Of a stretch of 64,000 nucleotides of DNA, positions 21,725 to 23,784 are shown piece after piece. The notes under the pieces are model-generated. The model was not told where the DNA came from. It made no database searches and saw only the letters and a program-made list of their open reading frames with translations. The stretch covers positions 295,897 to 359,896 of the forward strand of contig NZ_KI912404.1 in NCBI RefSeq assembly GCF_000518245.1, read 5' to 3'. This DNA comes from Brachyspira alvinipulli ATCC 51933 (GTDB lineage Bacteria > Spirochaetota > Brachyspiria > Brachyspirales > Brachyspiraceae). The position numbers and the translations under genes were made by a program. The number at the start of each line of letters is the position of its first letter. Position 1 is the stretch's first letter.

Positions 21725-23293
21725 TTAATTTTTTGCAGGTATTCCGAAAGGCATTCTTAATTTTACTATAGTACCTGCACCTTCAGAACTATCTATATTT
21801 ATAGCCCCTTGCATAGTATCAAGCAAATCTTTTACAACAGAAAGTCCTATTCCTATACCGCCATACTCTCTTTCAAATCTTGAATCACCTTGATAAAATG
21901 GTATAAATATCTTTTTTAATTGGCTTTGTTTTATTCCTTTTCCGGTATCTTTTACCATTATTTCTATTTCATTTGGTATGATGTTTTGCATTGTATGATA
22001 GTTAAATAAATCTGGAGAGAAATCCAAAGCCTTTTTTTCTATTGTGTCAAGAGTTCTAACATTAATAGATATAGTACCTGATTTTGTGAATTTAAATGCA
22101 TTTGATATAATACCTTCCATGATAAGTCTAAATCTTTCATGGTATCCTATTAGAACAGAACAATTTTTTTCTACATTTATTTCAATTTTGATGTCTTTAG
22201 GATATATGAATTTGTATCCTTCAACTATTATATTAATTTCATCTTCTACATTAAATTCTGATACATATTTTGAATTTTCATCATCTTTAAGTGCAATTTG
22301 TATTAAGTTATTATTAGTATCATACAATTTTTTTACACTTCTTGAAACAATGTTAAAAGCCTCTTCTCTTCTTTCTTCTGTTATATTATTCTTTTTTAAT
22401 AAATTAATGTATCCCATAATTTCAGTAAAAGGATGTCTAAGTTCATGCGAAACAGTAGCTTTAAATTCTCTTATAAGTTTATTATAATGTTCAGCACTTT
22501 TTTTAAGTGAGTTAATTTCATTTAAAAGCGTATGAAGCCTTTTTTGAAGTATTAAATTGTGATTTTTTTGATGTTCATATAGTATTGAAAAATAAAGCCT
22601 ATTAAGTCCTATTTCAGTTCCAGCATTTTTTATTATACCTTCTTTGCACCATTCTATAGCTTTATTAAAAGGAACAAAAAAAGATTCTATAGTCTCTTCC
22701 ATAACAGAACCGTCAGTTTTTATATGTTTTTTTGGAACTATGCCTGTTATATCACATGTGGCAATATTTATTCTCTCTGTGATGATTCCTGATGAACTAT
22801 AATATCTATGCCCAAGTACATTAATATTTTTTAAAGGCACAGAATATCCAGTTTCTTCCTCAAGTTCTCTTTGAGCACATTTTTTTATGCCTTGATTTTG
22901 ATTTTTATCATTCATTTCTTCTTCTTCAAGCATTCCTGCAGGAAACTCTAAGAATTTCATTATATGCTCATCTATATCCTCAGGATTTTTTTCTGTCATT
23001 ACCTTTTCTCTATAATAAACAACGGGTCTGAATGTGCTAATCATAAGTACATGTATTTGATTATCTATATATGCATACGGTACTATTATTACAGCGTCAC
23101 GGCCTTTTCTATTAATTATATCGCAATTATATTCTCTTGAAAAACTGCCGTCATCGTATTCATTTATAGCAACAAATCTTTCTAAATTAACAAATCCCGT
23201 ATCCAATTTAATTGGAGGGGATTTATGGAAAAATTTTGTATCTTTTACAGTTTTGGTATTCTTTTTAAGATTTTTATTGTCATTGTTATCCAT
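21725..23293 (-). CDS. NUDIX hydrolase-histidine kinase fusion protein
   Basis: A soluble 522-residue protein with two parts. Residues about 35-235 are a NUDIX domain of the ADP-ribose/nucleoside-diphosphate-sugar pyrophosphatase type: FLEFPAGMLEEEE starting near 114, the catalytic RELEEETGY at 142-150, and YYSSSGIITERI near 165. Eight extra residues interrupt the NUDIX box between its first Glu and the REUxEE part. A helical linker (240-280) leads to a HisKA H-box SHELRHPFTE with phospho-acceptor His283. A complete HATPase follows: N-box with Asn398, DTGKGI at 449-454, FIPFYQGD, and GGIGIGLS at 478-485. No membrane helix, no receiver domain and no response regulator gene nearby. It follows the RsbW-like gene by 11 bases. 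Ligand-gated kinase activity is inference. Confidence 0.9.
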   Translation of the reverse strand: MDNNDNKNLKKNTKTVKDTKFFHKSPPIKLDTGFVNLERFVAINEYDDGSFSREYNCDIINRKGRDAVIIVPYAYIDNQIHVLMISTFRPVVYYREKVMTEKNPEDIDEHIMKFLEFPAGMLEEEEMNDKNQNQGIKKCAQRELEEETGYSVPLKNINVLGHRYYSSSGIITERINIATCDITGIVPKKHIKTDGSVMEETIESFFVPFNKAIEWCKEGIIKNAGTEIGLNRLYFSILYEHQKNHNLILQKRLHTLLNEINSLKKSAEHYNKLIREFKATVSHELRHPFTEIMGYINLLKKNNITEERREEAFNIVSRSVKKLYDTNNNLIQIALKDDENSKYVSEFNVEDEINIIVEGYKFIYPKDIKIEINVEKNCSVLIGYHERFRLIMEGIISNAFKFTKSGTISINVRTLDTIEKKALDFSPDLFNYHTMQNIIPNEIEIMVKDTGKGIKQSQLKKIFIPFYQGDSRFEREYGGIGIGLSVVKDLLDTMQGAINIDSSEGAGTIVKLRMPFGIPAKN

Positions 23294-23304
23294 AATATAG
23301 ACTC

Positions 23305-23784
23305 TTATTCGTTTTTTAGATATTTTGTTAATGTTACAGAATTGCCTTTTTTATTATATTTAACAGCATCAAAATATGATTTAACCATCATCATTCCTCT
23401 TCCGTTTTCTCTGGCAAATCCTTCATTACTTATTTTTTTCATTTCTTTTTTAGGTTTGAAACCGCAACCTTGATCTTTTACATTTATGATTATTTCATTT
23501 TTAGCAATTTCTAATGAAATTTCTACATGTGTTTGTTTTGCTCTATCTGTTTTTAAAAGTTCTTTTAATTTTTTATTGTATATATTTTTTTTTAACCATT
23601 CCTTTTTCATTTCATATAATATATTTAAATTCCCGTGCTCTATTGCATTCATTATAACTTCATATAGTGCTGCGGCAAATAGGTCTATTTCATCATTTTT
23701 AATATATTTTTTTATTTCATGGCATATATTTTCTATGATAGGAGGTATATCTTCTAATCTATTTTTAAGAATATATTCTTTCAC
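23305..23784 (-). CDS. RsbW-like anti-sigma factor / serine-protein kinase ATPase
   Basis: 159 residues forming one GHKL ATPase domain: VIMNAIEHGN (N-box), VKDQGCGFKP (G1), ENGRGMMMVKSYFD (G2) and a closing GNSVTLTKYL strand. This is the RsbW/SpoIIAB-type pattern of kinases that bind a sigma factor and phosphorylate an anti-anti-sigma protein. An insertion of about 20 basic residues after the N-box (KKEWLKKNIYNKKLK) is longer than usual. The start is GTG with AGG upstream. It is first in the two-gene operon with the NUDIX-kinase, behind a promoter that is itself a perfect palindrome. No sigma or STAS-domain gene is adjacent. Confidence 0.85.
   Translation of the reverse strand: MKEYILKNRLEDIPPIIENICHEIKKYIKNDEIDLFAAALYEVIMNAIEHGNLNILYEMKKEWLKKNIYNKKLKELLKTDRAKQTHVEISLEIAKNEIIINVKDQGCGFKPKKEMKKISNEGFARENGRGMMMVKSYFDAVKYNKKGNSVTLTKYLKNE

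What the first reader, a model, noticed from the sequence alone, without database searches (positions are those of the whole stretch)
21725..23293. NUDIX hydrolase fused to a histidine kinase
One soluble protein combines a NUDIX domain of ADP-ribose-pyrophosphatase type with a complete HisKA-HATPase module (His283, Asn398, DTGKGI, GGIGIGLS). I know of no described system with this architecture. It could sense a nucleotide such as ADP-ribose, NAD breakdown products or a nucleotide alarmone by binding or hydrolysing it and then pass phosphate to a response regulator. This is the best candidate here for an undescribed system.
Basis: partly seen in the sequence, partly recalled or inferred. Interest (0 to 1): 0.8.

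Follow-up and report, generated by a model that had tools for sequence, protein, structure and literature searches.

The report
Cytosolic Nudix-gated histidine kinase of Brachyspirales
In a whole order of spirochaetes a single protein joins an apparently intact ADP-ribose-type nucleotide-cleaving domain to a bacterial signalling kinase, so these bacteria may sense a nucleotide made when NAD is broken down; the joined gene is real and anciently conserved, but what it senses and what it switches have not been tested.

Summary
ORF 21725-23293 (-) encodes one 522-aa soluble protein with a Nudix domain (aa ~17-240), a long helix, HisKA (His283) and HATPase_c. The fusion is not chance. It is present as one uninterrupted frame in 31/31 Brachyspirales genomes (down to 41% identity), and its Nudix subfamily is absent from 362 other Spirochaetota genomes. 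Catalytic residues of both halves are invariant. The nearest Nudix relatives elsewhere (Planctomycetota, Deltaproteobacteria) stand alone. All 27 of these carry the Asp-x-Lys motif of NDP-sugar hydrolases; all fused ones have lost it. An AlphaFold model runs the last Nudix helix without a break into DHp helix 1 (residues 224-299). An RsbW-like gene lies 11 nt upstream and stays with the kinase in three genera although surrounding genes differ; one reduced genome lacks it. The kinase has no adjacent response regulator and an unusual His (not Thr/Asn) at His+4. Best reading: a cytosolic histidine kinase gated by an ADP-ribose-like ligand that the Nudix domain may also hydrolyse. Ligand, hydrolysis, direction of control and partner are inferred. 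I found no description in the open literature searched. New variant of a known kind (sensor kinase with an unusual input domain).

The parts
21725..23293 (-). Nudix-histidine kinase gene, 522 aa, ATG start
   Evidence: orthologue in 31/31 Brachyspirales genomes
22574..23245 (-). Nudix domain (aa 17-240), including the N-terminal beta domain that is swapped in dimeric ADPRases/NDPSases
   Evidence: model vs PDB, Z ~18.8 to 3o61/5c7t over 14-241; profile match E=2.9e-14 to NudK
22844..22936 (-). Nudix box (aa 120-150) with inserted loop; Glu143, Glu146, Glu147 invariant in fused and standalone relatives
22694..22714 (-). DGSVMEE loop (aa 194-200), invariant; aligns with loop L9 that carries the catalytic acid in NudK/AdpP/Bd-NDPSase
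   Evidence: loop role from PMC4629899
22397..22624 (-). single continuous helix aa 224-299 joining the last Nudix helix to DHp helix 1
   Evidence: AlphaFold model, mean pLDDT 80.2, about 65-71 within the linker; one gapped column in aa 236-340 across the order
22274..22471 (-). HisKA/DHp domain (aa 275-340); phospho-accepting His283 at 22445-22447; His287 at H+4 instead of Thr/Asn
21743..22261 (-). HATPase_c catalytic domain (aa 345-517) with intact N, G1 and G2 boxes
21971..22051 (-). insertion in the ATPase domain (aa 415-441) containing PDLFNYH, invariant in all orthologues aligned
   Evidence: low model confidence there
23305..23784 (-). RsbW-like GHKL kinase/anti-sigma-type gene, 159 aa, 11 nt upstream of the Nudix-kinase gene, probable operon partner

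Best explanation
It is a cytosolic two-component sensor kinase whose input domain is a Nudix domain of the AdpP/NudK (ADP-ribose / NDP-sugar pyrophosphatase) branch. Proposed mechanism: two subunits pair through a domain-swapped Nudix dimer and the DHp bundle. A nucleoside-diphosphate-X ligand, most likely ADP-ribose or a close relative such as O-acetyl-ADP-ribose, binds the Nudix site. Binding or turnover shifts the last Nudix helix, which runs straight into DHp helix 1 and so controls autophosphorylation of His283. The phosphoryl group then goes to an unlinked response regulator. Because the Nudix active site looks complete, the domain probably also cleaves its ligand, which would make the signal self-limiting. 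Shown here: the architecture, its conservation, intact motifs, absence of membrane segments, the RsbW-like partner gene. Predicted: fold and continuous helix. Inferred: dimer arrangement, ligand, hydrolysis, direction of signalling, kinase output, target regulator.
For: All three domains in one frame. 31/31 Brachyspirales genomes carry the full-length fusion, and 0/362 other Spirochaetota carry a Nudix of this subfamily: other phylum hits are at most 48.5 bits against at least 243. Metal-binding glutamates, the DGSxMEE loop, His283 and N/G boxes are invariant in 17 orthologues down to 41% identity. Nudix and kinase halves are under similar purifying selection (dN/dS ~0.05-0.08 and 0.04-0.07; Ks near saturation). 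Helix 224-299 is continuous in the model, and from aa 236 to 340 only one column is gapped across the order, as expected if helix length and register matter. Homologous Nudix enzymes are domain-swapped dimers with shared active sites (PMC4629899), which fits the dimeric DHp. All 27 standalone relatives carry the Asp-x-Lys of GDP-mannose-type enzymes; all 16 fused sequences in A3 carry Asn-(Ala/Gly)-x there, similar to the Asn-Ala of Klebsiella ADPRase. It is the only Nudix of this branch among four in the genome. A Sir2 and a macrodomain protein are encoded, plausible ADP-ribose sources. Precedents for Nudix domains as ADP-ribose sensors: NrtR (cited in PMC9503650) and TRPM2 (PMC11479946).
Against: No ligand, hydrolysis or phosphorylation data. 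The ADPRase marker proline is Ser168 in all Brachyspira sequences in A3 (it is Pro in other genera), so ADP-ribose specificity is uncertain. The linker is modelled at pLDDT only 65-71 and as a monomer. No cognate response regulator is adjacent. Fully conserved catalytic residues also fit a plain enzyme.
Confidence: 0.55

Rival explanations
1. Control runs the other way: the protein is mainly the cell's ADP-ribose/NDP-sugar pyrophosphatase, and the kinase half regulates or localises the hydrolase.
For: Nudix active site fully conserved; the only AdpP-branch Nudix in the genome; no adjacent response regulator.
Against: Kinase motifs including the phospho-accepting His are just as invariant; the N-terminal-sensor, coiled-coil, DHp order is the usual input-to-output layout (PMC1592074).
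Confidence: 0.15
2. It feeds a partner-switching (RsbW/STAS/PP2C) pathway: the Nudix-kinase phosphorylates the orphan REC-PP2C regulator, which acts with STAS proteins and the co-encoded RsbW-like protein on a sigma factor or other target. (Compatible with the best explanation; it names the output.)
For: RsbW-like gene co-directional and close by in three Brachyspiraceae genera although neighbouring genes differ. A REC-PP2C orthologue is present in all Brachyspirales genomes searched for it, including both of the second family. The genome has at least five STAS proteins.
Against: The RsbW-like gene is missing from one near-complete genome of the genus (G010) and is not adjacent in the second family, both of which keep the Nudix-kinase. 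REC-PP2C sits with ftsI/ftsW-like genes, not with the kinase. Other orphan regulators exist. Being core genes, a shared distribution is weak evidence.
Confidence: 0.2
3. The Nudix domain senses a different ligand, such as an NDP-sugar, CoA-like or alarmone nucleotide, with little or no hydrolysis.
For: Below the TIGR00052 cut-off; marker proline replaced by Ser in Brachyspira; unusual inserted loop in the Nudix box; standalone relatives sit with a GFO/IDH/MocA-family oxidoreductase and a radical SAM enzyme, suggesting a special substrate.
Against: Loss of Asp-x-Lys argues against GDP-mannose-type substrates; best structural matches are ADP-ribose and NDP-sugar enzymes.
Confidence: 0.25
4. Chance fusion, frameshift or assembly artefact.
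For: None found.
Against: Uninterrupted in 31 genomes, two families, with purifying selection across all domains.
Confidence: 0.01

Closest known systems
NrtR / Nudix-HTH transcription regulators
   Same: Nudix domain used as an ADP-ribose-responsive sensor (literature).
   Different: Output there is DNA binding, not a histidine kinase; here the full set of Nudix metal-binding glutamates is retained.
TRPM2 channel with NUDT9-H domain
   Same: Nudix hydrolase domain fused to a signalling effector; in an early-branching form it also consumes ADP-ribose (PMC11479946).
   Different: Eukaryotic ion channel; unrelated effector.
E. coli NudK (GDP-mannose hydrolase), AdpP (ADP-ribose pyrophosphatase), Bdellovibrio Bd3179 NDPSase
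   Same: Closest solved structures of the Nudix domain, Z ~18-19.
   Different: Free-standing enzymes; the Brachyspirales domain lacks Asp-x-Lys, carries an inserted loop in the Nudix box, and continues into a kinase.
Soluble HisKA-family sensor kinases
   Same: HisKA plus HATPase_c with all catalytic boxes; N-terminal sensor followed by a coiled-coil helix.
   Different: Nudix input; His instead of Thr/Asn at His+4; PDLFNYH insertion in the ATPase domain.

Membership tests
HisKA-type histidine kinase | Phospho-accepting His in the DHp helix (Pfam HisKA) | tested here: met
   E=3.5e-8, His283 invariant
HisKA-type histidine kinase | HATPase_c with N, G1 and G2 boxes | tested here: met
   E=3.4e-19; Asn398, DTGKGI, GxGxGL
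HisKA-type histidine kinase | E/DxxT/N phosphatase motif of bifunctional HisKA kinases | tested here: not met
   His287 at H+4, invariant; the other three HisKA-type kinases of the genome have T or N (motif role PMC5727384). Lowers the claim of phosphatase activity, not of kinase activity.
HisKA-type histidine kinase | Cognate response regulator | tested here: inconclusive
   None adjacent; several orphan receivers in the genome
Nudix hydrolase | RExxEExG core of the Nudix box | tested here: met
   R142-E143, E146-E147, G149 invariant in orthologues
Nudix hydrolase | Canonical spacing G-x5-E-x7-R-E | tested here: not met
   inserted loop makes the spacing longer
ADP-ribose pyrophosphatase (AdpP/TIGR00052) | Curated family cut-off | tested here: not met
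   63.1 bits vs 79.55
ADP-ribose pyrophosphatase (AdpP/TIGR00052) | Marker proline downstream of the Nudix box | tested here: not met
   aligned position is Ser168 in Brachyspira, Pro in the other Brachyspirales genera aligned and in all standalone relatives (criterion PMC4629899)
ADP-ribose pyrophosphatase (AdpP/TIGR00052) | Hydrolysis of ADP-ribose | not testable with these tools
   needs an assay
NDP-sugar hydrolase (NDPSase) | Asp-x-Lys at the N-terminus of the last Nudix helix | tested here: not met
   Asn-(Ala/Gly)-x in all 16 fused sequences; Asp-x-Lys in all 27 standalone relatives
NDP-sugar hydrolase (NDPSase) | Domain-swapped N-terminal dimer | tested here: inconclusive
   the N-terminal beta domain is present in the model; dimer not modelled
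RsbW anti-sigma factor (neighbour gene) | Curated RsbW/SpoIIAB cut-off | tested here: not met
   32 bits vs 145; HATPase_c_2 domain clearly present, so RsbW-like only

The most novel reading that the evidence does not exclude
A two-component system that directly senses ADP-ribose (NAD breakdown or sirtuin/macrodomain flux) through a catalytically active Nudix domain, so that the receptor destroys its own signal, analogous to the TRPM 'chanzyme' but with a histidine kinase output, and coupled to an RsbW-type switch.
Probability: 0.25. Interest if true: 0.78.

Novelty: new variant of a known kind. Interest (0 to 1): 0.56.

Why it matters
Bacterial ADP-ribose sensing by Nudix domains is known mainly through Nudix-HTH regulators. 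An order-wide, core histidine kinase with an apparently intact Nudix input would add a phosphorylation route from nucleotide metabolism to regulation. It occurs in spirochaetes with few kinases (three other HisKA-type kinases besides CheA-like ones in this genome), in a genus that includes the agents of swine dysentery and intestinal spirochaetosis. The soluble single-chain protein makes the question directly testable in vitro.

Tried and rejected
Chance fusion: rejected by 31/31 conservation. Membrane receptor: no transmembrane segment. Degenerate Nudix kept only as a binding fold: not supported, since the metal-binding glutamates and the loop DGSVMEE are invariant. NDP-sugar (GDP-mannose-type) specificity: made less likely by loss of Asp-x-Lys. 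Conserved gene context as a guide to the regulator: only the RsbW-like gene travels with the kinase; the ECF sigma/anti-sigma pair downstream in some genomes is convergent and not universal. Co-distribution of REC-PP2C: present in all genomes searched for it but uninformative because both are core genes. Independent Nudix-kinase fusions outside this family could not be searched for: the collection scan used two family-specific peptide patterns. Literature searches found no paper describing a Nudix-histidine kinase, but the three papers were not opened and most subscription papers are missing from the library.

Full report
OBSERVATION. Pfam finds NUDIX (5.8e-6), HisKA (3.5e-8) and HATPase_c (3.4e-19), all over the curated cut-offs. 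A model of the full protein (mean pLDDT 80.2) places a Nudix fold at about 14-241, with best matches E. coli GDP-mannose hydrolase 3o61 (Z 18.9, rmsd 2.5, 187 aligned) and Bdellovibrio NDP-sugar hydrolase with ADP-ribose 5c7t (Z 18.8), and a kinase catalytic domain at 339-519 (ETR1 4pl9, Z 20.0). The protein has no hydrophobic stretch long enough for a membrane helix.

THE FUSION IS ANCIENT AND CONSERVED. The window lies in a Brachyspira genome (the same-genus loci are named Brachyspira). Every one of 31 Brachyspirales genomes, 29 of the same family and two of a second family, has the full-length fusion without internal stops, the 30 others at 41-98% identity. Repeating the search with the Nudix part alone over 393 Spirochaetota genomes gave the same 31 genomes at 243 bits or more in frames of 512-546 aa; the other hits are at most 48.5 bits in frames of 175-232 aa and look like ordinary short Nudix enzymes. 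A scan of one genome per species of 84,980 prokaryotes with two family-specific peptide patterns found the fusion only in this order; the other 29 hits, in Planctomycetota, Deltaproteobacteria and unassigned bacteria, match the Nudix part only, and the frame ends after the Nudix domain without a kinase. So the parts are separate genes only in distant phyla, and one fusion at the base of the order is the simplest history. Both halves are under similar purifying selection within the genus (Ks is near saturation, so the ratios are rough).

ANATOMY. In the orthologue alignment Glu143, Glu146 and Glu147 of the Nudix box, the loop DGSxMEE, Arg89, Glu116, His283, Asn398, Asp449 and the glycines of the G boxes are invariant. 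The Nudix box carries an inserted loop. The loop DGSVMEE aligns with the loop of NudK and AdpP that holds the catalytic acid. The last Nudix helix continues without a break into the DHp helix in the model (residues 224-299; confidence drops to 65-71 in the linker). From residue 236 to 340 only one alignment column is gapped, as expected for a signalling helix whose register matters (compare PMC1592074). The residue four after the phospho-accepting His is His287 in all orthologues, whereas the three other HisKA-type kinases of the genome have Thr or Asn; Thr at this place is needed for phosphatase activity in HK853 (PMC5727384). I infer reduced phosphatase activity. A 27-residue insertion in the ATPase domain contains PDLFNYH, invariant throughout; its role is unknown.

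LIKELY LIGAND. The nearest curated family is YffH/AdpP (63 bits, below its cut-off of 79.55). Published sequence criteria separate NDP-sugar from ADP-ribose enzymes (PMC4629899). All 27 standalone relatives in the alignment carry Asp-x-Lys, the mark of NDP-sugar hydrolases; all 16 fused sequences carry Asn-(Ala/Gly)-x instead, resembling the Asn-Ala of Klebsiella ADP-ribose diphosphatase. This points away from GDP-mannose and towards ADP-ribose, but the ADPRase marker proline is replaced by serine in Brachyspira, so it is an inference. The genome has three other Nudix proteins, none of this branch, and encodes a Sir2 and a macrodomain protein.

NEIGHBOURHOOD AND PARTNERS. An RsbW-like gene starts the presumed operon, 11 nt upstream. 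It keeps this position (11-119 nt) in the three Brachyspiraceae genera examined, while the surrounding genes differ between them. It is absent from one 2.0-Mb genome of the genus and not adjacent in the second family. No response regulator is adjacent. The genome has 14 receiver proteins; two kinases are paired with a neighbouring regulator, and unpaired regulators include a REC-PP2C protein, a REC-GGDEF protein, a HTH-REC protein and single receivers. A REC-PP2C orthologue is present in all Brachyspirales genomes searched for it, beside ftsW/ftsI-like genes where read. A pathway from Nudix-kinase to REC-PP2C to STAS and RsbW-like proteins is attractive but untested.

MECHANISM AND NOVELTY. 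Most likely the Nudix dimer senses, and perhaps cleaves, an ADP-ribose-like nucleotide and controls His283 phosphorylation through the continuous helix (0.55 for this general reading). Nudix domains as ADP-ribose sensors are known in NrtR repressors and TRPM2; as input of a histidine kinase I found none described, with the limits stated under Tried and rejected. I therefore rate it a new variant of a known kind: a standard sensor kinase with an unusual, apparently active enzyme as its sensor.

Noticed in passing
L052-L080 (Planctomycetota, Deltaproteobacteria and unassigned bacteria): Standalone relatives of this Nudix subfamily usually lie beside a GFO/IDH/MocA-family oxidoreductase gene (24 of 27 loci in the neighbour clustering) and a radical SAM gene (23 of 27). 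The three-gene set may be an undescribed pathway.
   Followed up: partly
L082:502-1833 (G000:C2): A receiver domain fused to LpxC (lipid A biosynthesis deacetylase), 444 aa, in the same genome: Response_reg at 24-131, LpxC at 167-440. An unusual link between phosphorelay and lipid A synthesis.
   Followed up: no
L045, L046, L047, L048, downstream of the kinase gene: A convergent ECF sigma factor with a zf-HC2-type anti-sigma protein (Pfam-checked in L045 and L048) and a small probably exported protein follow the kinase gene in several genomes, not in this window.
   Followed up: partly
L090:528-1676 (G000:C1) and orthologues: A REC-PP2C protein next to ftsW-like and penicillin-binding-protein-like genes in the Brachyspirales loci examined, including two of the second family.
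   Followed up: partly
window 21971-22051: Invariant PDLFNYH insertion in the kinase ATPase domain, function unknown, useful as a family marker.
   Followed up: no
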